NCBI GenBank assembly: GCA_036378175.1
Contig: DASUWY010000011.1
Coordinates: 1 to 39,416, forward strand
Reading direction: 5' to 3'
From: Thermoleophilaceae bacterium
Lineage (GTDB): Bacteria > Actinomycetota > Thermoleophilia > Solirubrobacterales > Thermoleophilaceae
DNA length: 39,416 nucleotides
Shown one piece after another: positions 509-37,907 of the stretch. Under the pieces are notes generated by a model, which worked only from the letters and a program-made list of their open reading frames with translations, searched no databases and was not told the DNA's origin. Numbering within the stretch: position 1 is the stretch's first letter; each line of letters opens with the position of its first letter. Both the position numbers and the translations under genes were made by a program.

Positions 509-991
509 TCAGGCGGAGCGGCGGAGCCACCACTGCGGCTCCTCGGACCGCTTGGCGGATGCGGGGGGAGCGGGCTCGGCTGTGGGCGGCTCTTCGGCGG
601 GCGGCTCGGGATTCGGCGCGACCGCGTCCAGCTCCATGGTGTCGGGCTCAGGCTCGGGCGCCACGGGCTGGGGCTCGGGCTCAGGCGACACGGCCACCGG
701 CTCGGGTGTGACGGCCACTGGCTCGGGCTCGACGAAGACCGGCTCGGGCTCGACGGCCACTGGCTCCGGCTCGGGCTCGACGGCCACTGGCTCGGGCTCG
801 ACGGCCACTGGCTCCGGCTCCGGCTCGACGGCCACTGGCTCCGGCTCGACGCGGGCCTGCTCGCGCGGCGGCATGGGAGCGTGCTGCACATACACCTCGG
901 CGGGCCGCCGCCGGCGCCGCAGCACGACGATCATCGCGATTGCGCCGAGCGACAGAAGCGGCACCATCGCGGAAAAACGGAAACGGGACAT
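509..991 (-). CDS. Single-pass membrane protein with Pro/Glu/Val repeat tail
   Basis: 160 aa, function unknown. The N-terminus ([20 protein letters not shown]) is one membrane segment followed by a basic RRRRR stop-transfer run; the rest is a low-complexity chain of [15 protein letters not shown]-type repeats ending in [11 protein letters not shown]. The ATG at 991 was chosen because a GAGGAG ribosome-binding site lies just upstream; the frame stays open far beyond it, but that extension is only antisense to the GST-like gene at 1088. Extended Pro/Glu repeats are typical of stiff linkers spanning the envelope (as in TonB), but no TonB C-terminal domain is present, so no function is assigned. 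Confidence 0.7.
691..852 (-). repeat. Imperfect tandem repeat encoding PEPVAVE units
   Basis: Units of about 18-27 bases (core CTCGACGGCCACTGGCTC on the + strand) recur without interruption and translate on the minus strand to repeated EPEPVAV. The near identity of adjacent units makes expansion and contraction by slippage likely. Confidence 0.7.
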
Positions 992-1087: not shown

Positions 1088-1807
1088 GTGCAGGCCAGGC
1101 TGTACGCCATTCCGGCATCCAACGCTTCGCTCACCGCCCAGCTCGCGCTCGACCGCAAGCAGATCCCCTACAGGCGGATCGATCAACTGCCGGTACTGCA
1201 CTGGCTGACGATGAGGCTGCGCGGCTTCGAGGGCAGCACCGTGCCGGGCCTCGTGATCGATGGCCGGAAAGTGCACGGAAGCGGGACGATCCTCCGGGCG
1301 CTCGACGAGCTCGCGCCCGACCCGCGTCTCTACCCGGAGGACCCGCAACAACGGGCGACGGTGGATAAGGAGGTGGCGTGGGGCGAGCACGTGTACCAGC
1401 GCACGTTGCGTTACCTCTTGCCGTACTCGCTGCTCCGCCGCCCGCGCGCGGTGTCGAGCGTGCTGGAGGGTGCTCAGATGTCGTTGCCCACCGGGCTCGT
1501 GGTGGCCGTTTCGAAGCCCGCTATCTACGTGAACTCGCTGAGACAGAAGTCCAACTCGCGCACCGTCCACGAGAAGCTTGGCGAACTGAGCGAAATGTTC
1601 GACCACGTGGACGATCTGATCGCGCGCGGCGTGCTCAATGCCGACGAGCCGGGCGCGGCCGACATGATGATCGCGCCCACCACGCGCGCCTTCCTGTGGT
1701 GGCAGGACCTGCGCCCGGTACTCGAGAAGAGGCCCGCAGCCGCCCACGCCCGCAGGCTCGCGCCGAACTTCGACGCAGACATCCCACCGGTGCTGCCGCG
1801 CGCCTAG
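1088..1807 (+). CDS. Glutathione S-transferase-fold protein
   Basis: 239 aa. The first 75 residues match a thioredoxin/GST N-terminal fold: a beta strand (ARLYAIPAS), a helix of the SLTAQLALD type, then the cis-Pro strand [18 protein letters not shown] with the Ser/Thr-Ile region used in glutathione contact. The remainder is helical like a GST C-domain. The usual N-terminal catalytic Tyr/Ser/Cys is not obvious; ASNAS could supply a Ser. Many actinobacteria lack glutathione, so the true thiol or substrate is unclear. Starts at GTG with a -10-like hexamer close upstream. Its TAG stop lies in the CTAG shared with gatD on the other strand. Confidence 0.75.
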
Positions 1808-2526
1808 ACGCCCGCGGCGCGCCGCGCGCTCATGTGCGCGGCCTCTTCGAGCGAGTCGTCGGCCAGTGGCTGGAGCTCGATCCCGAGCGCCAGCTCGATC
1901 AGGCGGTCGGCGAGCCAGATGTTCTTCGGCAGGAGCGGCCCATGCAGGTAGGTGCCGATCGTGTTGCCGCGCCGCACGCCCTCGAAGCCGTCACGACCGT
2001 TGTTGCCAAACCCGTTGAGCACGCGGCCGAGCGGCTGCTCGTGCTCGCCGAGGTAGGTGCGGCCACCGTGGTTCTCGAAGCCGGCGATGATCCGGGCCCC
2101 GCCGCCGAGGTCGCTCTCTATCGCACAGTTGCCGATCAGCCGCGGTCCCGGCTCCCGCACCGTGCGCAGGTCAACCAGCTCGACTCCCGGGAGCTCCACG
2201 TCGCCGAGCTGATAGCTCGATCCGAGCAGCTGGTAGCCGCCGCACACCGCGAGGATCACGGCGCCACGGGCCTGGGCCGTGTGCAGCGCCTCGCGCTTTG
2301 TGGCGACCATGTCCTCCGCCACGGCCACCTGGTCGCGATCCTGGCCGCCGCCCATGTAGAAGAGGTCCGCCGCCTCCGGGTCGAGCGGCGCCGCGAGACC
2401 GGACGCGAGATGCTCGAAGCCGAGCCCGCGCCATTCGCAGCGCGCCCGCAGTACGGCGATGTTGCCGCGGTCGGCATAGATGTTCATCAGGTCCGGATAG
2501 AGCGAGCAGACGCGCAGCGTGGGCAT
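1804..2526 (-). CDS. gatD: Lipid II isoglutaminyl synthase, glutaminase subunit GatD
   Basis: 240 aa CobB/CobQ-like class I glutamine amidotransferase that releases ammonia from glutamine for MurT, which amidates the alpha-carboxylate of D-Glu in the lipid II stem peptide. The nucleophile elbow is [10 protein letters not shown] with Cys95; [12 protein letters not shown] carries His195; Arg129 in GPRLIGN corresponds to the substrate Arg described for this family. The third triad residue comes from MurT in characterised complexes. It is last in a leftward operon and starts in a TGATG overlap with the methyltransferase. Unusually, that methyltransferase separates it from murT. It ends in a CTAG shared with the convergent GST-like gene. 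Confidence 0.93.
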
Positions 2527-3257
2527 CAGGTGGCCTCCAGCATGACGATGGTGCTGCCGAGGTAGCGATCGTCCTCCGGCACCGTGCGCCGCGGCAGCAC
2601 GCGGAAGAGCCCGGCGGCCTCCTCCTCGAGCTCCTCGGGCTCCACCCGGTCGAGTACCACCGTGTTCATGCTCTCGGTGAGGTCGCCGCCGGGGGACACG
2701 GCCTGCCTCAGCCGGTCGATGGCCGTGCTCTCGTCCTCAACGCGCAGGAGCACCGGCATGCTCGAGTACACCCAGCCGCCCTCCTCGCGCACGTCCGGAA
2801 GCGGCGGCTGGAGATCCTCCTCGGGAATGTCTTCAAACGGGTCGGCCAGCGCCGCGGCAAAGACACCGCCGGGTGCGAGATGCGCGTGCACTCGGCGGAG
2901 CATCGCCTGGCGGCCGGACCTGCCGCCCATCAGCTGCGCCACCTGCATCGGCGCGATCACGAGCGCGAAGTGCTGACCCAGGTCGAACGTGCGCGCGTCC
3001 GCCACGCTGGTGCGGACGCGCAGGTCGCGCTCGCGCGCCCGGGCGGCGAGCGCCGCGATGAGGGCGGGGTCGGAGTCGAGCGCGGTCACGTCATGGCCGC
3101 GGGCGGCGAGGTCGAGGCTCACGCGGCCGGTGCCCGCGCCGATGTCGAGCAGCACGCCGCCGCGCTCGTCCGCCAGCGCGCGCCACAGCTCGAGGTCGGC
3201 GCCGTAGGAGGCGCATTCCACGTCGTGCCAGATCACCGCGTCGTCGTCCACCGCCAT
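2526..3257 (-). CDS. Class I SAM-dependent methyltransferase between murT and gatD
   Basis: 243 aa. The Rossmann SAM-binding motif I is LLDIGAGTGRVSLDLAARG (about residues 36-54), followed by the acidic strand end TALDSDP and a motif IV-like VIAPMQVAQLM; the layout is that of small-molecule or lipid methyltransferases. The ATG at 3257 overlaps the murT stop as TGATG, and its own TGA overlaps the gatD ATG the same way, so the three are translationally coupled. The open frame extends upstream to 3734, but that part is antisense-like sequence inside murT and is rejected. The substrate is unknown; the position suggests a cell-wall precursor or lipid (inference). Confidence 0.88.
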   Translation of the reverse strand: MAVDDDAVIWHDVECASYGADLELWRALADERGGVLLDIGAGTGRVSLDLAARGHDVTALDSDPALIAALAARARERDLRVRTSVADARTFDLGQHFALVIAPMQVAQLMGGRSGRQAMLRRVHAHLAPGGVFAAALADPFEDIPEEDLQPPLPDVREEGGWVYSSMPVLLRVEDESTAIDRLRQAVSPGGDLTESMNTVVLDRVEPEELEEEAAGLFRVLPRRTVPEDDRYLGSTIVMLEAT

Positions 3258-4612
3258 CAGTCGGACCACCTCCGAGCCAGCCCGCGGTCGGCCAGCAGGT
3301 CGCGCAGCTCGAGCAGGGCCGTGTAGGTGGGGAGGGCGTAGAGCGGCTGCCCGTTGCCCGCGGCCACCGCGGAGTCGAGCGAGCGGCCGAGGTCCCGCTC
3401 CACCGTAATCTCGCCGTCCACGCCCGCGTACTTCAGCCGCAGCGCCATCTCCTCCGCACGTGTGCCCGAGCAGGTGATGTGCCTCACCCGCCCGGCCAGC
3501 ACCTCGAAGTCGGCGTCCCAGATCCAGGAGATGTCGCGCCCGTCGGCGATCCCGTCGTTCAGCGCGATCCAGAGGTCCAGCGCGCCGCCCTCGAGGGTCA
3601 GGGTGCGGAGCACCTCGTTCGCGCCGGCGGGGTTCTTCACGAGCAGGATCGCCAGCTCGCGGCCGTTCACGCGCAGTCGCTCCACGCGCCCGAACGCGGC
3701 GGCGAATGCGCCGAGCGCGTCCCGAACCTGCCACGGGGAAGCCCCCAGCTCGAGCGCGGCGGCAGTGGCCGCGAGCGCGTTGTAGACGTTGTAGAGGCCG
3801 GGGAGGGGAAGGCTCAGCTCGATCGCGCCCGCTGGGGTGGCGATTCGCACATCCGAGCCCGCCATGCCGCGGAGCGTGACCGTCTCGGCGGCCACCTGGG
3901 GGTGCGGGCGCTCACGGCCGCAGTTGGGGCAGCGGTAGCGGCCCAGATGGCCGAGATACACGGCCTCGTAGACGTACTCGTGCCCGCAGTTGCGGCAACG
4001 CTTGGAGTCCGATGCGTGTTCGAGCGCCTCCAGCGAGTGCGAGCGGTCCTCCACGCCGAAGTACACCACGCGCCGGCGCTCGCGCCCGAGGTCCGCCACG
4101 AGCGGATCGTCGGCGTTCAGCACGAATGTCGAACGGCCGTCGCGCTCGGCCACCAGCTCCGCCCAGCGGTCGGCGAGCAGCTCGAGCTCACCGTAGCGGT
4201 CGAGCTGGTCGCGGAACAGGTTGGACAGCAGGATCAGCGATGGGTCGAGGTCGCGCGCCACCGGCGCGAGCCACGCCTCATCCACCTCGAACAGGCCGAT
4301 CTGCCCTGGTGTGCGGCCGGCGTCGAGCAGCGCGGTGGCCACTCCCCAGTTCATGTTCGAGCCCGCGCGGTTGTGCACCACCTCGGCGCCCGCGGCCTCG
4401 AGCACCGCCGCCAGCATCGAGGACGTGGTGGTCTTGCCGTTGGTGGCGGACACCACCACTGAGCCGCGTTCGAGCCGCTTGCCGAGCATCGCGATCGTGC
4501 CCGAGTCGAGCCGCAGGAGCACACGGCCGGGGAGCGTGGTTCCGCCGCGGCGGCCCACGCGGCGGCTGAGCATGCGGAGCACGCGGGCCATGGCGAGCTT
4601 GAGCCGCATCAT
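3257..4612 (-). CDS. murT: Lipid II isoglutaminyl synthase, ligase subunit MurT
   Basis: 451 aa Mur-ligase-like enzyme: ATP-dependent amidation of lipid II D-Glu using ammonia from GatD. Visible: Walker-type ATNGKTTT (56-63), Mur-ligase central domain with NADDP (166-170), an inserted Cys4 zinc ribbon (Cys206, 209, 228, 231) typical of MurT, and the C-terminal DUF1727 domain with LNDGIADGRDISWIWD, which holds the Asp proposed to complete the GatD triad. Two adjacent ATG codons (4612, 4609) overlap the lipid-kinase stop; either may be used. Coupled downstream to the methyltransferase. Confidence 0.94.
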   Translation of the reverse strand: MMRLKLAMARVLRMLSRRVGRRGGTTLPGRVLLRLDSGTIAMLGKRLERGSVVVSATNGKTTTSSMLAAVLEAAGAEVVHNRAGSNMNWGVATALLDAGRTPGQIGLFEVDEAWLAPVARDLDPSLILLSNLFRDQLDRYGELELLADRWAELVAERDGRSTFVLNADDPLVADLGRERRRVVYFGVEDRSHSLEALEHASDSKRCRNCGHEYVYEAVYLGHLGRYRCPNCGRERPHPQVAAETVTLRGMAGSDVRIATPAGAIELSLPLPGLYNVYNALAATAAALELGASPWQVRDALGAFAAAFGRVERLRVNGRELAILLVKNPAGANEVLRTLTLEGGALDLWIALNDGIADGRDISWIWDADFEVLAGRVRHITCSGTRAEEMALRLKYAGVDGEITVERDLGRSLDSAVAAGNGQPLYALPTYTALLELRDLLADRGLARRWSD

Positions 4613-5484
4613 CGGGGTGCGATCACCCGCAGCGCCCGCTTCGCCACGCCGATCTTCACGGGCAGGTCGGCGATCGGATCGCCGTCGGCGTAGACGGTGA
4701 ACGGCCGGTCGGCGCTCACCTCGATCTCGGCACCGGACAGCCATTGGATGTGCGCGTCGTCCACGTGCCTGCCCTTGAACACCTTCGGCACGGTGGCCAG
4801 CCAGTGCAGCTTGGAATGGGAGCGGGTGAGCATCACATCGAGGCGCCCGTCGTCGAGCTCGGCGTGCGGCACGAGGAACATCCCGCCGCCGTAGGCCTTC
4901 GAGTTCGCGACGGCGACCGCGTAACCGGTGAGATCGTGACGCTGGCCGTCCACCACCACCTCGAAGCTAGCGTCGTGCCAGCGCCAGAGCGCGAGCAGGG
5001 CCGCGTACAGGTACACGAGGTTGCCCTTCACCACGCGCGTTTCGTTCGCGATCCGGTTCGCGTCGGAGTCGAAGCCCACGCTGGCGATGCCCACGAACGG
5101 GCGGCCGTTCACGTTGGCCACGTCCACCAGCCGCTCCGCGCCGTCAACCGCGAGCTGCGCGGCGGCCTTCGGCTCCACGGGGATGCCGAGCACGCGCGCG
5201 AAGTCGTTCCCGCGACCGCCCGGCACGATCGCCAGGGCGCTGTCGGTGTTCATCAGGGCACCCGCCAGGCAGCCCACGAGCCCGTCGCCGCCAATGGCCA
5301 CCACGGTCTCGTCCGCCGCGGCGGCTTCGAGCGCGGCGTCGTGGGCATGCTTCAGGCTGCGCGTGTCGAGCACGCGGTAGCTGGCGTCCAACCGCTCGAG
5401 CTCCTCCCGCACGAGCGGAAGCGCGCGCGCAGCACGACCGCCGGCAGCGGCGGGATTTACGAAGAGCGCCAGGGACCGCGTCAC
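4609..5484 (-). CDS. Diacylglycerol kinase-like lipid kinase (YegS/DgkB family)
   Basis: 291 aa, ATP-dependent phosphorylation of a lipid or sphingoid-type hydroxyl at the membrane face. Motifs: LFVNPAAAGG at the N-terminus, the nucleotide-binding VVAIGGDGLVG (GGDG at 65-68; the family norm is GGDGT, here Leu follows), PGGRGNDFARVLG, and C-terminal DGRLDVMLTRS. The GTG at 5484 overlaps the preceding stop by four bases (GTGA). Its 3' end overlaps murT. Recycling diacylglycerol or making a phospholipid precursor would fit an envelope operon, but the exact substrate cannot be read from sequence. Confidence 0.88.
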   Translation of the reverse strand: MTRSLALFVNPAAAGGRAARALPLVREELERLDASYRVLDTRSLKHAHDAALEAAAADETVVAIGGDGLVGCLAGALMNTDSALAIVPGGRGNDFARVLGIPVEPKAAAQLAVDGAERLVDVANVNGRPFVGIASVGFDSDANRIANETRVVKGNLVYLYAALLALWRWHDASFEVVVDGQRHDLTGYAVAVANSKAYGGGMFLVPHAELDDGRLDVMLTRSHSKLHWLATVPKVFKGRHVDDAHIQWLSGAEIEVSADRPFTVYADGDPIADLPVKIGVAKRALRVIAPR

Positions 5485-6293
5485 TCGGCGGCGGCCAGCC
5501 GGGCCGCACGCTCGGCCGCGAAGCGCCCGCGCTCCTCACCGCGTAGCTCGTGCCCCTCGGTGAACTTCACGATGTCCGCCCGCTCGAGCAGCTCGTCGCC
5601 CACCAGGCGTTCGGCATGCGGCTCCTCGACGTCGTTCGGGTCGAGCGTGAGCAGCACGTCCTGCCCGACGCAGTGCCACGCCTCCTGGGTGATCTTCTCC
5701 GAAGCCACGAGCAGCTGCCCGGGCCTGTGCAGCCAGTGCAGCTCGAAAATGCCCAGCTTGTAGGCGTAGAGCCGTTCCCCGTCGCCGAACAGGAAGTTCA
5801 GTCCCGAGAACGGGGAGCGCTCGATCACGGCGGTCACCGCCTTGCGCAGCGACCCGACGATGTTGCCGCGGTCCAGATGCGACATCAGGTAGTTGAAGAA
5901 GTGCTCGCTGTCCGTCGTGCCGTGTGGCGGCTGCACGTTCATGTCCATCAGCCGCGGGAAGTACAGGATCGTGCCGTTGTGGCCGAACGAGTAGGGCCCG
6001 AGGCAGAACGGATGGGTGTTCTGCATCACGAGCCCGCCCATGGTCGCGCGGCGCACGTGCACGTTGAAGATCCTGCCGCGCAGCTCGGTGGCGGCCCCGA
6101 AGGCGTCGTCCTCGAAGGCCGCCTGCGGGAAGCGCTTGCAGATCGGCTCCTCGCCCTCTCCGCGCCTGTAGACCGCAAGTCCCCAGCCGGAATCGTGGTC
6201 CTCGGACTGGCGGATCATCGGGTTCTCGGCGTCGAGCAGCTCATGCCGCAGCGATACCGCCTCTGACGCTACGCAGCCAAGTACGCGGCACAT
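5481..6293 (-). CDS. Class II glutamine amidotransferase (YafJ-like)
   Basis: 270 aa, a stand-alone N-terminal-nucleophile glutaminase domain. Cys2 directly after the initiator Met (MCRVLGC) is the catalytic nucleophile; FNVHVRRATMGG, NTHPF, FGHNGTI and TDSEHFF are the glutamine-binding and oxyanion elements in their normal order. The ATG at 6293 is fixed by the need to expose Cys2; longer upstream frames are rejected. First gene of the coupled envelope operon, so the operon encodes two unrelated glutaminases (this and GatD). No synthase domain is attached; the ammonia acceptor is unknown. Confidence 0.88.
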   Translation of the reverse strand: MCRVLGCVASEAVSLRHELLDAENPMIRQSEDHDSGWGLAVYRRGEGEEPICKRFPQAAFEDDAFGAATELRGRIFNVHVRRATMGGLVMQNTHPFCLGPYSFGHNGTILYFPRLMDMNVQPPHGTTDSEHFFNYLMSHLDRGNIVGSLRKAVTAVIERSPFSGLNFLFGDGERLYAYKLGIFELHWLHRPGQLLVASEKITQEAWHCVGQDVLLTLDPNDVEEPHAERLVGDELLERADIVKFTEGHELRGEERGRFAAERAARLAAAE

Positions 6294-6350
6294 GGGGGCG
6301 AGAACCCGTCGCTCACGACTTAGGAGTCTAAAGCGACCGAGGAGTTGAGC

Positions 6351-6875
6351 ATGGAAACCCCCGATCGGATCTGGTGGGCACGACCCAAGAAGCTGTGCGC
6401 GATGGAGCGCCCCGGAGGGGGCGGGCGCAGCCACAGGCCCGAGCGCCGCGAGGCGGACATCGCCTATCTGCTGGAGCACGACGTGCGTCTCGTGATCTCC
6501 ACGATGACCACGCGCCACAACCTGGGCGACTACGACGCCGTCGGGCTCGAGTGGCTCCACGTGCCTGTGGCGTCATGCGACGAGGGCGCCGACGCGCTCG
6601 AGGAGCTTCTGACCGTGCTTCGGCGCGAGACGCGCAGGCGCGGTGCCGTTGCGGTGCACGGGAACAGGCACACGGACTTCGTCGCGGCGCTGTGCGCGGC
6701 CCACCTGCACGAGGTGAAGGGCGTGGATCCAGAGACCGGCCTGGCCGGCGCGGTGGAGGCGGGCCTGACCGTCACACCCGAGGCGGCCACGCTCCTCGGC
6801 GTTCGCTACGACGCGGTCCAGCCGCGCTCGCGCATGGCCTCCTCCACCGCCTTGGGACGGTCGGTGACCACGTAG
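6351..6875 (+). CDS. Dual-specificity-phosphatase-like protein, probably catalytically dead
   Basis: 174 aa. The layout resembles a small cysteine phosphatase: an N-terminal helix, VRLVISTMTTRHNLGDY, then LEWLHVPVASCDEGADALEELLTVL, and a P-loop position reading VAVHGNRHTDFVAALCAAHL. The family signature is HCxxGxxRT/S; here the Cys is absent and the loop is shortened, so phosphatase chemistry is not expected. ATG 6351 has GAGGAG six bases upstream. The last ~22 codons overlap the convergent gene ending at 6806 by 70 bases, suggesting loss of an earlier stop. Diverges from the envelope operon. Confidence 0.6.
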   Translation: METPDRIWWARPKKLCAMERPGGGGRSHRPERREADIAYLLEHDVRLVISTMTTRHNLGDYDAVGLEWLHVPVASCDEGADALEELLTVLRRETRRRGAVAVHGNRHTDFVAALCAAHLHEVKGVDPETGLAGAVEAGLTVTPEAATLLGVRYDAVQPRSRMASSTALGRSVTT

Positions 6876-7090
6876 GCGTCCACGATCGCGCCGTCGGTGT
6901 TGATCGTGATCGACAAGCCGGAGTCCGTGCGCCGCACCTTGGAGATCGGGGCGATCGGCCGCCCCGAACCCATCCGCGGCTTGATCCGCCCGGTGGCAAC
7001 GCGATGAACGCCGTCGATCTTGGCGAGGCCGTCCAGCAGGCGGCGGTAGCCCTTCGTGGATGAGTGCTTGTGGTGGGTTTTGCGGGGCAA
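6806..7090 (-). CDS. Small conserved protein, DUF2103-like
   Basis: 94 aa. His-rich N-terminus (PRKTHHKHSSTKGYRRLLDG), then a compact alpha/beta domain with KIDGVHRVATGRIKP and a C-terminal strand/helix. This resembles the DUF2103 family of putative metal-binding proteins, recalled from memory and not searched. The start is uncertain: TTG at 7090 gives this frame, there is no recognisable ribosome-binding site, and the start abuts the heptad repeats at 7093. It lies downstream of the HAD phosphatase gene on the same strand, separated by the inverted-repeat element. Confidence 0.55.
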   Translation of the reverse strand: MPRKTHHKHSSTKGYRRLLDGLAKIDGVHRVATGRIKPRMGSGRPIAPISKVRRTDSGLSITINTDGAIVDAYVVTDRPKAVEEAMRERGWTAS

Positions 7091-7092
7091 GT

Positions 7093-7237
7093 GGAGTAAG
7101 GAGTCGGAGTAGGGAGTATGGAGACTGGGCCTCCGTGACGCGTGCGGGTCGCGCGGCCGTTTACGGCAGCAATAAGGGTTGGTCTCCCACGTGGGTGCCG
7201 CTCTTTATTGCTGCCGTTTCTCCTCACCCCTTACTCC
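7093..7237. repeat. Composite intergenic element: inverted heptad arrays around a nested palindrome
   Basis: Left arm: GGAGTAA, GGAGTC, GGAGTAG, GGAGTAT, GGAGACT in tandem (7093-7126). Right arm, on the opposite strand: GGAGTAA (7237-7231), GGGGTGA (7230-7224), GGAG (7223-7220). The arms bracket a perfect 13-bp inverted repeat and a central CCCACGTGGG palindrome. The right arm includes the HAD gene stop codon (TAA of GGAGTAA); the left arm abuts the start of the next gene. No coding capacity of its own. Confidence 0.65.
7163..7217. repeat. Perfect 13-bp inverted repeat with central palindrome
   Basis: ACGGCAGCAATAA (7163-7175) is exactly complementary to TTATTGCTGCCGT (7205-7217), with a 29-base spacer that contains the perfect palindrome CCCACGTGGG (7186-7195). 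A two-tier hairpin can form on either strand. It could stop or stabilise the HAD transcript; there is no poly-T tail, so a simple intrinsic terminator is not shown. Confidence 0.75.
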
Positions 7238-8034
7238 GTATTCAGCACGAGCTCTGCCAGATTCGCCGCCAGGGCGATCGGTTTCGGTTTTTTCGCTGCC
7301 GCCGCCTCCTCGGCGCTGGTGTCACCCGTGAGGACGAGTGCCGCGTCGAGGTGCGCTCGGCTGGCGCCGAGAACATCGCTGTCGAGACGGTCTCCGATCA
7401 CGAGCGTGCGCCCATCGCCCAGGCGATCGAGGGCGGTGAGGAAGAGCTGGGGCTCCGGCTTGCCCACGATGGCGGCCGTCTGCCCGGAGGCGGCTTCCAC
7501 CGCGGCGAGCAGCGCGCCCGTGCCCGGCCAGTAACCCTCGGGCATCGGGTAGGTGGGATCGCGGCCGGTGGCCAGAAGGTCGCCGTTGCGCCGCGCGGCG
7601 AGGCCGGCGTTCTTGAGGTCGTCGTAGGTGAGCTCGAGTGCGGCGGCCACGACCACCACCTCTGCCCGCGAGGCGAGGTCGGTTCCGTTCATTACCCGCA
7701 GCCCCGCGTCCTGCACGTGACGGAACATCGACTCCGAGCCGATCACGAACGCTGTCCTGCCCTGGCGCGTCTCGGCGAGGAGGTGCTGCATGGCGCCGCC
7801 GACGGTGACCACGTCCGCGAGCGACGCGCGGACGCCCATGCCCCACAGCTTCGCCACCTGATCCTCGGCGGAATACCACGAGTTGTTCGTGACGAAGGCG
7901 AGGCGCATCCCGGCCTCTCGGATTGCGTTGATCGCGTCGACGGAACCGGGGATCGGCTCCGGCCCGATCCACACGCACCCGTCGAGGTCGAGGATCACCT
8001 GGTCGTATTCGCGCAGCAGGGGAGTGAGCGCCAT
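7231..8034 (-). CDS. NagD-type HAD-superfamily phosphatase (subclass IIA)
   Basis: 267 aa cytoplasmic sugar/nucleotide-phosphate phosphatase of the HAD-IIA group. Motif I DLDGCVW has nucleophile Asp16 and acid/base Asp18; motif II is the Thr in FVTNNS; the Lys motif is GKPEP; motif III is GDRLDSDVLGA with Mg-binding Asp. The LTGDTS stretch after motif III is typical of NagD/AraL relatives. The C2-type cap lies between TNNS and GKPEP. Starts at ATG 8034, divergent from the cyclophilin gene; its TAA lies in the heptad element. The substrate cannot be inferred. Confidence 0.92.
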   Translation of the reverse strand: MALTPLLREYDQVILDLDGCVWIGPEPIPGSVDAINAIREAGMRLAFVTNNSWYSAEDQVAKLWGMGVRASLADVVTVGGAMQHLLAETRQGRTAFVIGSESMFRHVQDAGLRVMNGTDLASRAEVVVVAAALELTYDDLKNAGLAARRNGDLLATGRDPTYPMPEGYWPGTGALLAAVEAASGQTAAIVGKPEPQLFLTALDRLGDGRTLVIGDRLDSDVLGASRAHLDAALVLTGDTSAEEAAAAKKPKPIALAANLAELVLNTE

Positions 8035-8064
8035 GAGGCGGGCAATCGTCTCAGAATGGGTCGC

Positions 8065-8070
8065 TAGCCT
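8065..8070 (+). promoter_or_regulatory. -10 element (TAGCCT), eight bases before GTG
   Basis: TAGCCT then TACGCGCC then the GTG start at 8079, with no Shine-Dalgarno sequence. The same hexamer with the same 8-base spacing precedes the genes starting at 13340 and 19917 on the minus strand. Confidence 0.55.
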
Positions 8071-8078
8071 TACGCGCC

Positions 8079-8789
8079 GTGCGACACCTAGCTCTGATGC
8101 TCACGCTCGTGCTGGTGCCGCTCGCGGCAGCAGGCTGCGGCAGCTCGAAGTCGGGAACCAGCTCGAGCGCCGCCGCGTCAGCACCATCCACCGCCAGCGC
8201 ACCCGCCAGCACCCAGGCCACAGCCAGCAACGGCTGTACAACCGAGAAGGCGCCTCCGGCCCGCAAAGCCGGCGGCGAGTCGAAGCCCAAGGGCAAGCTC
8301 GACCCGAAGAAGACCTACACGGTCACCGTGCAGACCAACTGCGGCACCTTCGCCTTCAAGCTGGACGTGAAGGACTCACCTGACACGACCGCGGCGTTCG
8401 CGGGACTGGTCAAGCGTGGCTTCTTCAACGGGCTCATCTTCCACCGGATCGTGCCCGGCTTCGTGATCCAGGGGGGCGACCCCGCCGGCACCGGCGAGGG
8501 CGGCCCGGGCTTCAGCACCGTGGACCCGCCGCCCAAGAGCGCCGACTACAAGCTCGGCACAGTGGCGATGGCGAAGACACAGACCGAGCCGGCGGGCGCC
8601 GCGGGGAGCCAGTTCTTCGTCGTGACCGGACAGGACGCGCAGCTGCCCCCGGAGTACGCGCTGCTCGGCCACGTGACGAGCGGGATCGACGTGGTGCAGC
8701 GCATCGGGAAGCTCGGCAACCCCACCGATCCGAACGGCACGCCAACGCAGACGGTGGTGATGAAGAAGGTGACGGTGAGCAGCGGATGA
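8079..8789 (+). CDS. Secreted lipoprotein cyclophilin (peptidyl-prolyl isomerase)
   Basis: 236 aa. A lipoprotein signal peptide with lipobox LAAAGC (Cys20) is followed by a Ser/Ala/Thr-rich linker (about 21-50) and a cyclophilin domain from about residue 75: VQTNCGTFAFKLD, FHRIVPGFVIQGGDP (catalytic Arg and Phe), a Gln/Phe-containing GSQFFVVTG, and YALLGHVTSGIDVV. It should catalyse prolyl isomerisation of exported proteins at the outer face of the membrane. The upstream -10 suggests a leaderless mRNA. Its stop overlaps the CnoX-like ATG by four bases (ATGA), coupling an extracytoplasmic foldase with a cytoplasmic chaperedoxin. Confidence 0.92.
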   Translation: MRHLALMLTLVLVPLAAAGCGSSKSGTSSSAAASAPSTASAPASTQATASNGCTTEKAPPARKAGGESKPKGKLDPKKTYTVTVQTNCGTFAFKLDVKDSPDTTAAFAGLVKRGFFNGLIFHRIVPGFVIQGGDPAGTGEGGPGFSTVDPPPKSADYKLGTVAMAKTQTEPAGAAGSQFFVVTGQDAQLPPEYALLGHVTSGIDVVQRIGKLGNPTDPNGTPTQTVVMKKVTVSSG

Positions 8790-11708: not shown

Positions 11709-12431
11709 ATGCGTGCGATGAGGGGATGGATCGAGGGGCTGGGCGGTTCGCTGGTGGTCACCTGTGGCGTGGTGGTCGCAGCGCTCGCCGCCCTCGCCTT
11801 CGTCGCCTTTCACGCCGGCAGCTCGTCGCGGGTCGTCACCGGCAAGGTCGGAAGCGTTCCGATCGGCGGGCGGCAGGCGAGGGAGACGGGCGAGGTGAAG
11901 TTCGCTGGGGGCTCAGCGGCAGGCGGAGCGGCCAGCTTCGTTCACCGGTCAGTCCGCACGCACCGAGGTGGATCGCATGGGGGTCGCCGTCGCGCCGGTA
12001 CTCACGGTTTCGGCCGGCGCGGCGGCGGCAAGCTTCCTGGCGCATCGCCCAAGTCCGGCACGCCGAACTCCACGGGTGGAGGCGGCGGCTCGACCGGGAC
12101 GGGCCACGGCGGCTCGAGCGGCTCCGGCTCGGGCTCGGGCGGTGGTTCCACCAGCGGCGGCGGTGGCTCCGGGACCGGCGGCCTCGGGCAGACCGTGTCC
12201 GATACGGGCCAGACCGTGGGCAACACCATCGACAACACCACGCAGACCCTCGGCAACACGATCGACAACACGACGCAGACCGTGGGCAACACCGTGGGCG
12301 GACCGGTCGGCGACACCGTGAGCGGCACGGGCCAGGCCGTGGGCAACACCGTGACGAACACCGGGCAGACGGTCGGCAACACCGTCGACCAGGTGACGAG
12401 CGGCGTCGGCGGCCTGCTCGGCGGCGGCTAG
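11709..12431 (+). CDS. Membrane-anchored Gly-rich protein with 11-residue repeats
   Basis: 240 aa, unknown function. One N-terminal membrane segment (LVVTCGVVVAALAALAFVAF), then a basic Gly/His/Arg-rich region (about 60-115), a Gly/Ser stretch (about 120-155), and a C-terminal third made of near-identical QTVGNTIDNTT units (11 residues, 33 bases at DNA level) ending in VGGLLGGG. Eleven-residue Thr/Asn/Val repeats of this kind can form extended amphipathic helices or surface fibres. The most likely location is the outer face of the membrane or the wall. No enzyme motif is present. Confidence 0.68.
   Translation: MRAMRGWIEGLGGSLVVTCGVVVAALAALAFVAFHAGSSSRVVTGKVGSVPIGGRQARETGEVKFAGGSAAGGAASFVHRSVRTHRGGSHGGRRRAGTHGFGRRGGGKLPGASPKSGTPNSTGGGGGSTGTGHGGSSGSGSGSGGGSTSGGGGSGTGGLGQTVSDTGQTVGNTIDNTTQTLGNTIDNTTQTVGNTVGGPVGDTVSGTGQAVGNTVTNTGQTVGNTVDQVTSGVGGLLGGG
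12210..12293 (+). repeat. 33-bp tandem repeat (11 codons) in the Gly-rich protein gene
   Basis: Two full 33-base units (12210-12242, 12243-12275) beginning CAGACC and containing GGCAACACSATCGACAACAC, followed by a partial unit CAGACCGTGGGCAACACC (12276-12293). More diverged copies continue to about 12390. Confidence 0.7.
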
Positions 12432-31597: not shown

Positions 31598-33004
31598 CTA
31601 GTAGCCCACCGGATGGCGGACCACGAAACCCGCGCCCGAACGCGGCGTGCTCTTCCAGCGGCTCCCGCCGCCACCGCCGGTGTCGAAGCGGCGGCCATCG
31701 ATCGTCATCCAGGCGTGGCCCGAGTTGGCGTAGATGGTCACGTGCGCGCCGGGACCCGGAGCGCCGTAGCTCTCGAGCGCCGTGGAGTCCTCCGGTGCGC
31801 TGAGGAGCCCACCGGCGTGCAGCACGTAGCTCACCGAGCCGGAGCAGTCGTAACCGCTCGACACGAAGCTGCCATGCCCGCCGCCGTACACGTACGGCGT
31901 GTTGGCGATCTGGTTGGCCGCCGCGATCATGCGCGCGATCACGCCGCTCGACCCGGAGCTCGAGCCCGATGAGCCCGAGCCGCTGCCCGAGGACGAGCTG
32001 TGGCGCTCGTGGAGCGGGGTGGAGGGGGCGCCGATGCCCAGCGCCTGCGCGGTGGCGGGACCCACCACGCCGTCGGCCGTGAGGCCGTGCGCGGCCTGGA
32101 AGTGCTTCACGGCGGCGGCCGTCTGCGGCCCGAACACGCCGTCGGCGGGGATGCCGAGCGCCCTCTGCACGTCCGACACGGAGCTGCTGCCGGAATCGCT
32201 GCTGCCGCTGGACGACCGCGCGCGCGAATGATGGGCGTGCGCCTCACGCAGCGGAGCGGCCGGCGCCGACAGGCCGAGCGCCTGAGCGGTTGCGGGCCCG
32301 ACGATGCCGTCGACGGTGAGGCCGTGCGCGGCCTGGAAGTGCTTCACGGCGGCGGCCGTCTGCGGGCCGAACACCCCATCCGCCGAGATGCCGAGCTTCG
32401 ACTGCACGGCGCTCACCGTGGCGGCGGAACCCGCGCTCGAGGCGCTCGCCGTGGTCGCTGTGGCGGCGGTGGCGAGGCCAAGTGAGCCGAGCGTCTGCGG
32501 CCCGACGATGCCATCGACGATCAGCCCGTGAGCGCGCTGGTAGCTGCGCACAGCGTGCTCGGTCTCCGGACCCCAGATGCCGTCGGCGGCGATTCCGAGC
32601 GCGCGCTGCACACTCGCCAGACTCGCGCCGTGCACGTGCGACACCGCGGGCTGCGAGCTGCTGTCGGCCGTGGCCACGCCCGTGGCGGCCGGGAACACCG
32701 CGGCGGCGGCGATCGCCATCGTGCCGGCCCGGCGGACCGGCTTGCGGTTCGCGCGCGCCTGCTCGAGGGCGCGGCGGCGATGCTGCGAGCGCAGCAGGGA
32801 CTTCTCCCACAGCTCGAGCGAGGTGAGGTCGCGCGGCTGGAAGCGCGGCACGAGGCCCAGCGCCTGGGCCTCGGGGATGCGAACGGTCCGCTCTACCTTG
32901 GCGAGCGAGCGTGCGCGGGCGCCCGGCCGGCGGCGCTTGCGCGAGCGCTTCAGCGAGTCCCGCCAAAGCTCGGGATTCGAGAGGTCACGGAGATCGGTGG
33001 GCAT
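31598..33004 (-). CDS. Cell-wall hydrolase: three peptidoglycan-binding domains + NlpC/P60
   Basis: 468 aa. Residues 1-85 are cytoplasmic-looking and basic, with a duplicated motif DLSNPELWRDSLKRSRKRRR (7-26) and DLTSLELWEKSLLRSQHRRR (59-78). A signal/anchor follows (GTMAIAAAAVFPAATGVATA). Three PG_binding_1 domains carry LGIAADGIWGPETEHAV, LGISADGVFGPQTAAAV and LGIPADGVFGPQTAAAV, each with DGIVGP/DGVVGP, separated by Ser/Gly linkers. The C-terminal NlpC/P60 peptidase has Cys in YDCSGSVSYVL and His in GHAWMTIDGRRF. ATG 33004 has AAGGA six bases upstream. It cuts stem peptides; expression is under the c-di-AMP riboswitch. Confidence 0.93.
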   Translation of the reverse strand: MPTDLRDLSNPELWRDSLKRSRKRRRPGARARSLAKVERTVRIPEAQALGLVPRFQPRDLTSLELWEKSLLRSQHRRRALEQARANRKPVRRAGTMAIAAAAVFPAATGVATADSSSQPAVSHVHGASLASVQRALGIAADGIWGPETEHAVRSYQRAHGLIVDGIVGPQTLGSLGLATAATATTASASSAGSAATVSAVQSKLGISADGVFGPQTAAAVKHFQAAHGLTVDGIVGPATAQALGLSAPAAPLREAHAHHSRARSSSGSSDSGSSSVSDVQRALGIPADGVFGPQTAAAVKHFQAAHGLTADGVVGPATAQALGIGAPSTPLHERHSSSSGSGSGSSGSSSGSSGVIARMIAAANQIANTPYVYGGGHGSFVSSGYDCSGSVSYVLHAGGLLSAPEDSTALESYGAPGPGAHVTIYANSGHAWMTIDGRRFDTGGGGGSRWKSTPRSGAGFVVRHPVGY

Positions 33005-33022
33005 GCTCAATCCTTGTGTTCC

Positions 33023-33162
33023 GGCGCCTACGAGGTGAGCTGACGGGCTCGCGCTAGAACACTCGCGCTATGCCGCACCTGCGGCGATTCGCCCCTGCGG
33101 CCATCCAGACCGCTATTGGTTCCCCCGTTCCCCACGAAGCGGGTTCGTGGAGACTCGGCGCA
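33023..33162 (-). ncRNA. Cyclic-di-AMP riboswitch (ydaO-yuaA class)
   Basis: On the minus strand the leader has the class-defining blocks in order: GCGCCGAGTC at the 5' end (33161), GGGGGAACC, GGGGCGAATC and, at the 3' end, CGTCAGCTCACCTCGTAGG followed by CGC, which closes P1 with the 5' GCGCC. The class regulates cell-wall hydrolases and osmolyte transporters in Gram-positive bacteria, mostly turning expression off when c-di-AMP binds. The P1 3' strand is about ten bases before the AAGGA ribosome-binding site of the NlpC/P60 gene; no separate terminator was seen, so the expression platform may act on translation. Confidence 0.9.
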
Positions 33163-33211
33163 TTTGTCGGGCGCCATTCAAGCACAATTTGCAGGAACTT
33201 TTGCTAAAGGA

Positions 33212-37286: not shown

Positions 37287-37907
37287 CTGCTCGCGGAGGT
37301 CGGCGAGCTCTCTTCGTAGCTCTGCCACTTCGCGCTCCAGTCGCTCCAGCCGATCATCGAACTCGGTGACTGGTGACTGGTGACTGGTGGCTGGCACCGC
37401 AGGTTCGGGCGCTGTCTCAGTGTCGTCGTCGAGCTTCAGCCTGTAGCGCTGCTCCTTCTGTCCGGGACGTCGCTCCAGGCGCTCGATGAAGTCGCGCTCC
37501 GCGAGGCGTGTGAGCACGGCGTCCAGTGCCTCGTGGCCGGAGAACCGCTGAAGGCGTTCCGTGCGCTGGCGCAGCTCGCCCGGCGTCTGGGGGCCGCGCA
37601 GCATCAGCACGGCGAGCACGGCGAGCTCCTCGCGGTCGAGCTGGAGCGTGTCGTCGAGCAGGTGGCGGTATTTGGTGGCGCGCGTGGTGTGGCCGCTCGC
37701 GAGGCGCACGTAGCGGCGCCGCGCGAGCCGCTCGAGCGCTCCCCGGATGGTGTGCTCGTCGTACTCCACGACGGGATCGCGATTGGTGGACTGGTTGCAC
37801 GCGAGCCGCAGCGAGTTCAGCGTCAGCGGGTAGGCGTCCGGCGTGGTGCGCTGCTTCTCGATGAGGCAGCCGAGCACGCGGATCTCCACGGGGTTCAGGT
37901 CGAGCAC
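37275..37907 (-). CDS. YceH/DUF480-family protein
   Basis: 210 aa. The family signature is intact at the N-terminus: LNPVEIRVLGCLIEKQRTTPDAYPLTLNSLRLACNQSTNRDPVV, two winged-helix domains follow (about 1-80 and 90-160), and a final coiled coil (EFDDRLERLEREVAELRRELADLREQL). Between them is a linker (PAVPATSHQSPVT) that is encoded by a 30-base heptamer repeat. GTG 37907 (or 37910) is preferred to the longer frame: TACGCT lies seven bases upstream and the family starts here. A regulatory or nucleic-acid role is likely from the winged helices. Confidence 0.88.
   Translation of the reverse strand: MLDLNPVEIRVLGCLIEKQRTTPDAYPLTLNSLRLACNQSTNRDPVVEYDEHTIRGALERLARRRYVRLASGHTTRATKYRHLLDDTLQLDREELAVLAVLMLRGPQTPGELRQRTERLQRFSGHEALDAVLTRLAERDFIERLERRPGQKEQRYRLKLDDDTETAPEPAVPATSHQSPVTEFDDRLERLEREVAELRRELADLREQLGA
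37365..37394 (-). repeat. Heptamer tandem repeat GGTGACT inside the YceH-type gene
   Basis: On the + strand GGTGACT (37365-37371, 37372-37378, 37379-37385), GGTGGCT (37386-37392), GG. Thirty bases in total keep the gene's frame and encode PATSHQSPVT in the linker. The ending GGTGGCTGG parallels the GGTGGCAGG end of the array at 29538. Confidence 0.8.

What the first reader, a model, noticed from the sequence alone, without database searches (positions are those of the whole stretch)
1804..6293. Envelope operon with a methyltransferase between murT and gatD
murT and gatD are normally adjacent because their products form one complex. Here a SAM methyltransferase is inserted with one-base TGATG overlaps on both sides, and a lipid kinase and a second, class II glutaminase are coupled upstream. 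The tight coupling suggests equal amounts and a shared pathway, perhaps a further modification of a lipid-linked cell-wall precursor. Neither the methyl acceptor nor the role of the second glutaminase is known.
Basis: partly seen in the sequence, partly recalled or inferred. Interest (0 to 1): 0.55.

Follow-up and report, generated by a model that had tools for sequence, protein, structure and literature searches.

The report
Methyltransferase inserted between murT and gatD
A cell-wall operon in one group of soil bacteria carries an extra methyl-transferring enzyme wedged between two partner genes; the arrangement is real and conserved across the group, but some relatives keep the enzyme after losing both partners, so it probably does a separate and still unknown job.

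Summary
Observation confirmed. On the minus strand, a class II glutaminase, lipid kinase, MurT, class I SAM methyltransferase (MT) and GatD run from 6293 to 1804 with overlapping stop/start codons. The insertion is no quirk: in the window's order, MT lies directly after MurT in 119 of 127 genomes that have both, and also in 20 of 20 MurT-bearing genomes of a second order of the class; elsewhere in the phylum MurT and GatD are usually adjacent. MT is under purifying selection, and its model resembles amine N-methyltransferases (TylM1, CypM, CalS10) over the whole chain.

MT and MurT/GatD come apart both ways: three genomes keep MT beside the lipid kinase without MurT or GatD, and 12 of 139 MurT-bearing genomes lack MT. 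One genus moved MurT away; another has a gamma-glutamyl-cyclotransferase-like gene between MurT and MT. So MT is neither an obligate MurT/GatD subunit nor dependent on amidated lipid II. The glutaminase and kinase are not constant partners either. Best guess: an amine N-methyltransferase acting on an envelope precursor independently of glutamate amidation; the acceptor is unknown. New variant of a known operon, of moderate interest, testable by muropeptide mass spectrometry in cultured Solirubrobacter.

The parts
5481..6293 (-). Class II glutaminase-like protein (GATase_4, N-terminal nucleophile, EgtC/YafJ-like), 270 aa; present only in part of the lineage
   Evidence: Pfam GATase_4 65.4 bits (cut-off 23); EgtC model 73 bits, far under its cut-off 218.65; Cys2, HVRRAT, NTHPF, HNGT conserved in 8 of 8 aligned members, DSE likewise
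4609..5484 (-). YegS/DgkB-type lipid kinase (DAGK_cat + YegS_C), 291 aa
   Evidence: Pfam DAGK_cat and YegS_C, NCBIfam TIGR00147 over its cut-off
3257..4612 (-). MurT, ligase subunit of lipid II isoglutaminyl synthase, 451 aa, with four-Cys insertion
   Evidence: MurT_C 112.7 bits (cut-off 25); aligned to S. aureus MurT 6gs2_B, E 1.2e-73; only MurT_C match in its genome
2526..3257 (-). Class I SAM-dependent methyltransferase (MT), 243 aa, motif WHDVEC..Y..D near the N terminus; likely amine N-methyltransferase
   Evidence: Methyltransf_25 59.3 bits (cut-off 27); model pLDDT 94.7; nearest folds include CypM, TylM1, CalS10; dN/dS 0.19 against L002
1804..2526 (-). GatD, glutaminase subunit of lipid II isoglutaminyl synthase, 240 aa (Cys95 and His195 as catalytic residues by alignment)
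   Evidence: GATase_3 116.5 bits; aligned to solved GatD chains; C95 and H195 invariant in 12 of 12
3255..3259 (-). murT/MT junction, TGATG (stop and start share one base)
2524..2528 (-). MT/gatD junction, TGATG (stop and start share one base)
6806..7090 (-). DUF2103 protein, upstream neighbour in part of the order
7231..8034 (-). HAD-family hydrolase, upstream neighbour in much of the order

Best explanation
The operon makes the ordinary lipid II D-glutamate amidation enzyme MurT/GatD, plus a methyltransferase that is translated from the same message by stop/start coupling but works on its own. The MT most likely methylates an amine on an envelope precursor or on a small molecule that feeds the envelope (for example the side-chain amine of diaminopimelate in a peptidoglycan precursor, or an aminosugar), before, after or without amidation. 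Shown: the operon, its conservation, purifying selection on MT, the fold class, and that MT survives without MurT/GatD and the reverse. Inferred: N-methylation chemistry, an envelope acceptor, and co-regulation as the reason for the gene order.
For: Position kept: 119 of 127 genomes with both genes in the order, plus 3 with one gene between; f4, another order, 20 of 20. The DagK-MurT-MT-GatD block stays whole in 5 loci (L012, L015, L079, L080, L082) in which none of the usual dUTPase-HflX-DapL-DapF neighbours were found in the flanks held. dN/dS 0.18-0.28 in four MT pairs. Model pLDDT 94.7; among the best matches over the whole chain are CypM Z 24.6, TylM1 24.4, CalS10 24.2, KedS8 23.3, glycine sarcosine N-methyltransferase 23.2. 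The daptide methyltransferase model, whose studied member N,N-dimethylates an amine (PMC10036551, passages), is hit by 45 of 46 MTs at E 1e-10. MT without MurT and GatD in 3 genomes.
Against: Nothing tested shows the acceptor. C-methyltransferases (PsmD, SgMT, SeMT) score Z about 22 and a bacillithiol methyltransferase 20.8 on the same model, so the fold does not fix the chemistry. Gene order could be inertia: the wider neighbourhood is also conserved. MT evolves faster than MurT and GatD (dN/dS 0.19 against 0.08 and 0.09) and is missing from a number of MurT-bearing genomes, so it is not essential.
Confidence: 0.42

Rival explanations
1. The MT is a general small-molecule methyltransferase with no role in the cell wall; it was inserted once into a stable operon and has stayed there by inertia.
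For: The neighbourhood as a whole (DapF-DapL-HflX-dUTPase facing GatD-MurT) is old and present also in loci without MT, such as L075 of family f9. MT is kept in 3 genomes without MurT/GatD and not found in 12 of 139 MurT-bearing genomes of the order. A second MT copy in G159 stands apart from murT (L093).
Against: The position is held across two orders, and the four-gene block stays together in 5 loci where the wider neighbourhood was not found.
Confidence: 0.35
2. One reading: MT is a working partner of MurT/GatD, needed in equal amount, acting on amidated lipid II.
For: One-base overlaps on both sides, conserved coupling.
Against: MT persists with MurT and GatD both gone; MurT moved elsewhere while DagK-MT-GatD stayed in the 3 genomes read of one genus; MurT-GatD without MT.
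Confidence: 0.1
3. MT belongs with the lipid kinase and modifies a lipid or aminolipid head group.
For: In all three genomes found without MurT/GatD, MT directly follows the kinase gene.
Against: In the f4 loci read, MT has no kinase beside it (L068-L070); genomes without MT keep the kinase beside MurT (L095, L096, L097, L102). The nearest assigned folds act on sugars, peptides and small amines, though that list does not exclude lipids.
Confidence: 0.1

Closest known systems
murT-gatD operon of Staphylococcus aureus and Streptococcus pneumoniae
   Same: MurT and GatD with the conserved catalytic and Cys-rich parts
   Different: There the two genes are adjacent (S. aureus: 4 bp apart, PMC3267633); here a methyltransferase gene separates them
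Daptide methyltransferase MpaM (NF041820)
   Same: Nearly full-length similarity, 94.3 bits, residues 23-231; an amine N-methyltransferase (PMC10036551, passages)
   Different: Under the model's cut-off of 175 bits; no daptide partner genes among the five operon genes
TylM1 / CalS10 / KedS8 aminosugar N-methyltransferases and CypM peptide N-methyltransferase
   Same: Same fold over 221-226 aligned residues, Z 23-25
   Different: 18-21% identity in those rows; different setting; substrate not known here
EgtC, class II amidohydrolase of ergothioneine synthesis
   Same: Related class II fold family by sequence profile, conserved class II residues
   Different: 73 bits against a cut-off of 218.65; the same genome has a better EgtC candidate at C4:38350-39141, 163.9 bits

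Membership tests
MurT (lipid II isoglutaminyl synthase ligase subunit) | MurT_C domain over the curated score | tested here: met
   112.7 bits, cut-off 25
MurT (lipid II isoglutaminyl synthase ligase subunit) | Four-cysteine zinc-ribbon-like insertion | tested here: met
   Cys pairs CRNC and CPNC lie at the S. aureus insertion in the alignment; the four-Cys insertion is described in PMC6085368 (passages)
GatD (class I glutaminase subunit) | Nucleophile Cys and His of the triad | tested here: met
   C95 and H195 invariant in 12 of 12 and aligned with solved GatD chains; roles of the S. aureus residues Cys94 and His189 from PMC6085368 (passages)
murT-gatD operon | murT and gatD adjacent | tested here: not met
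   MT lies between; gap between MurT_C and GatD matches 791 bases
MurT/GatD complex | Amidates D-Glu of lipid II | not testable with these tools
   needs biochemistry
Daptide methyltransferase NF041820 | Score over the curated cut-off of 175 bits | tested here: not met
   94.3 bits
Amine N-methyltransferases with TylM1/CypM-type lid | Fold over the whole chain including the antiparallel sheet lid | tested here: met
   Z 24.4 to TylM1 (225 residues, 2.4 A), 24.6 to CypM (221, 2.7 A)
Amine N-methyltransferases with TylM1/CypM-type lid | Transfers methyl to an amine nitrogen | not testable with these tools
   C-methyltransferases score Z about 22 on the same model, so fold alone does not decide
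EgtC (TIGR03442) | Score over the curated cut-off of 218.65 bits | tested here: not met
   73.0 bits; the best of three matches in the genome lies elsewhere
YegS/Rv2252/BmrU lipid kinase (TIGR00147) | Score over the curated cut-off of 118.65 bits | tested here: met
   137.1 bits

The most novel reading that the evidence does not exclude
The MT N-methylates an amine of the peptidoglycan precursor (such as the diaminopimelate side-chain amine or an aminosugar): a wall modification conserved in two orders of one actinobacterial class that would cap the amine used for cross-linking, made alongside but independently of D-glutamate amidation.
Probability: 0.2. Interest if true: 0.75.

Novelty: new variant of a known kind. 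Interest (0 to 1): 0.42.

Why it matters
Lipid II amidation by MurT/GatD is essential in some Gram-positive bacteria (PMC6085368, title and passages), and its genes are usually a clean pair. A conserved extra methyltransferase in the middle points to a possible undescribed modification of the wall or its precursors in a large and little-studied soil lineage. Cultured carriers exist in the records found here (Solirubrobacter soli DSM 22325, locus L015; S. phytolaccae KCTC 29190, locus L012), so it can be tested directly. The natural losses in both directions say where to look: the acceptor should not need amidation.

Tried and rejected
Obligate complex of MT with MurT/GatD: rejected as the main reading because each occurs without the other. 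Random insertion in one genome: rejected. The glutaminase being the EgtC of ergothioneine synthesis: thought unlikely, since the genome has EgtD (C24) but a better-scoring EgtC-like gene elsewhere (C4); no class II glutaminase was noticed when reading the ORF list beside EgtD (by eye; an EgtB-like ORF there was recognised by eye, not scanned). A daptide cluster: rejected, score under cut-off and no partner genes among those scanned. Context of the nearest MT relatives outside the class (nine loci fetched; ORFs of six listed): no murT, gatD or kinase match in any of the nine, so no hint of the acceptor. Promoter and terminator scan of 1500-8200: nothing found on either strand. Tree of 56 MTs: f4 MTs form one clade (SH-aLRT 99), and f4 plus order MTs are split from 9 outgroup MTs with support 88, but the root is chosen and 25 of 53 inner branches are weak, so common ancestry of the f4 and order insertions is likely but not shown. 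Literature: searches for MurT+GatD+methyltransferase (10 papers listed, none on this subject by title and abstract start), Solirubrobacter+peptidoglycan+amidation (none), MurT+GatD+peptidoglycan+operon+Actinobacteria, methylated muropeptide (none), Thermoleophilia+peptidoglycan+methyltransferase (none on this by title), N-methylation+diaminopimelic acid+muropeptides (on drug accumulation). No description of this arrangement was seen; the library lacks most subscription papers.

Full report
What is there. The five genes lie on the minus strand, in the order class II glutaminase (6293-5481), lipid kinase (5484-4609), MurT (4612-3257), methyltransferase MT (3257-2526) and GatD (2526-1804). Pfam places them as GATase_4, DAGK_cat + YegS_C, Mur_ligase_M + MurT_C, Methyltransf_25 and GATase_3, all over their cut-offs. 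MurT aligns over its length with the S. aureus subunit, including the Cys-rich insertion and the C-terminal ADGRD..W..DADFE stretch. GatD keeps its Cys and His in 12 of 12 aligned relatives and aligns with solved GatD chains. The genome has one MurT_C match. MurT and GatD are therefore ordinary.

How conserved is the insertion. In 119 genomes drawn from the class, MurT_C occurs in 80; an MT match follows it directly (54 to 194 bases between matches) in 2 of 3 f1, 6 of 6 f2, 12 of 12 f3 (the window's order) and 20 of 20 f4 genomes, and in 0 of 39 genomes of five other families (from; the weaker MT rows were checked by eye). In 151 genomes of the window's order, 139 have MurT_C and 129 have MT at E 1e-25; 127 have both. 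Of those 127, 119 have MT directly after MurT, 3 have it 656-916 bases on, and 5 have it on another contig. Of the five, G148 and G195 have contigs ending inside or beside the operon, and G138, G140 and G166 belong to one genus in which the kinase, MT and GatD stay together and MurT is elsewhere. In the three with a larger gap, the ORF between MurT and MT was scanned in two (L090, L091) and matches the gamma-glutamyl cyclotransferase family GGACT just over its cut-off; a similarity search puts the same gene in the third (L092). Across the phylum sample, 69 of 78 MurT loci outside f1-f4 have GatD within 250 bases, 1 at 276, 8 far or not found, while the 12 f1-f4 loci have 784-931. So the insertion is a property of two orders. 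The named records nearest the window are Thermoleophilaceae, Solirubrobacterales and Solirubrobacter; that f4 is a different order is told by the search (same class only), its name is not.

Translational coupling. In 29 loci with the three genes on one strand, 26 have a possible MT start within 25 bases of the MurT stop (24 overlapping), and 29 of 29 a possible GatD start within 25 bases of the MT stop (24 overlapping). The nearest start codon was chosen, which biases towards short distances.

The two-way separation. Among 97 genomes of the order at least 90% complete and at most 5% contaminated, 95 have MurT and 89 MT (tallies); reading the lists, 87 have both, 8 MurT only, 2 MT only (G047, G071) and 0 neither. 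In G047, G071 and G427 (the genome of L010) no GatD is found at E 1e-5, and the only MurT matches are weak (best 7.7e-10) and are read as other Mur ligases. In G047 and G071 the MT lies in the usual place, between the kinase and the facing dUTPase-HflX-DapL-DapF genes, with MurT and GatD both missing from either side of it. The MTs of L010, L063 and L064 are in the MT alignment and keep the N-terminal and SAM-binding motifs. Conversely, loci of G103, G119, G139, G158, G194 and G242 have MurT and GatD adjacent and no MT. Hence MT function does not need MurT/GatD, and MurT/GatD does not need MT.

Selection. Between the window and L002, dN/dS is 0.19 for MT, 0.08 for MurT, 0.09 for GatD, 0.30 for the kinase and 0.10 for the glutaminase; three other MT pairs give 0.18, 0.28 and 0.23. 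MT is maintained, but less strictly than MurT and GatD.

What the MT is. A model built on 46 relatives has pLDDT 94.7. Foldseek's best match is an unassigned archaeal methyltransferase (1wzn); CcbJ, CypM and TylM1 follow within the first seven rows. The second aligner's best rows are 3d2l (unassigned) Z 24.7, CypM 24.6, TylM1 24.4, YunM 24.2, CalS10 24.2, KedS8 23.3 and glycine sarcosine N-methyltransferase 23.2, all over about 220 residues. Most assigned matches move a methyl to an amine of a sugar, peptide end or small amine (from entry titles and recall), but C-methyltransferases (SgMT 22.4, SeMT 22.2, PsmD 22.0) and a bacillithiol methyltransferase (20.8) are close behind, so the chemistry is inferred. 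Of the 46 MTs, 45 match the daptide methyltransferase model at E 1e-10; the window's MT scores 94.3 against a cut-off of 175. The studied daptide enzyme dimethylates a primary amine (PMC10036551, passages).

The upstream genes. The class II glutaminase is seen beside the operon in the window, L002, L003, L004, L065, L066, L088, L090, L091 (f1 or its close kin) and L094 (f10), and not in the other loci examined (55 in all, some of them cut short by contig ends). It keeps Cys2, HVRRAT, NTHPF, HNGT and DSE in 8 of 8; that these are the class II glutamine-binding residues is recalled. It is not the best EgtC candidate of its genome (72.2 bits against 163.9 for C4:38350-39141). With the GGACT-like gene of one genus, two gamma-glutamyl-type enzymes have joined this operon, which may be a hint at gamma-glutamyl chemistry; that is speculation. 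The lipid kinase is the usual neighbour of MurT in the order, and of MT where MurT is gone.

Verdict. For comparison, PMC3267633 (passages and section 27) describes murT-gatD as a widespread syntenic block, and PMC6085368 (passages) reports the operon as universal in Actinobacteria; neither set of passages mentions an inserted gene, and 'methyl' does not occur as a word start in the main text of PMC6085368. The statement 'universal in Actinobacteria' is not borne out here: 89 of 198 genomes of the phylum sample have MurT_C. I favour an independent amine N-methyltransferase with an envelope acceptor (0.42), against a non-envelope function held in place by inertia (0.35).

Noticed in passing
window 33010-33170, minus strand: c-di-AMP riboswitch (RF00379, 64.8 bits) directly upstream of a 470-aa ORF (31598-33010) with repeated peptidoglycan-binding-like units and an NlpC/P60-like end (read by eye, not scanned); an expected pairing.
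   Followed up: partly
L090:6517-7098, L091:5748-6311, L092: A gamma-glutamyl cyclotransferase-like gene (GGACT, just over its Pfam cut-off in the two scanned) sits between MurT and MT in three genomes of one genus.
   Followed up: partly
G138, G140, G166 (L083-L086): MurT has left the operon; kinase-MT-GatD stay together.
   Followed up: yes
L099 (G196), L098 (G172): Second, divergent MurT copies without MT; in L099 MurT and GatD are adjacent (46-48% identity to the window's).
   Followed up: no
L093 (G159): A second MT copy away from murT/gatD, near an acyl-ACP thioesterase-like gene.
   Followed up: partly
L014: A contig labelled Bifidobacterium breve MAG carries the same operon as the Solirubrobacterales records; probably a mislabelled or mixed bin.
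   Followed up: no
window 651-851 and 12210-12385: Tandem repeats (21-48 bp and 33 bp units) in or beside coding stretches.
   Followed up: no
window 37365-37394: Short 7-bp tandem repeat GGTGACT, 4.3 copies.
   Followed up: no
G317, G296, G386, G307, G366 (family f21): MurT and GatD lie apart from each other in several genomes of one family outside the class, against the rule of adjacency.
   Followed up: no
phylum sample: Only 89 of 198 genomes of the phylum have a MurT_C match, although a paper calls the operon universal in Actinobacteria (PMC6085368, passage).
   Followed up: no
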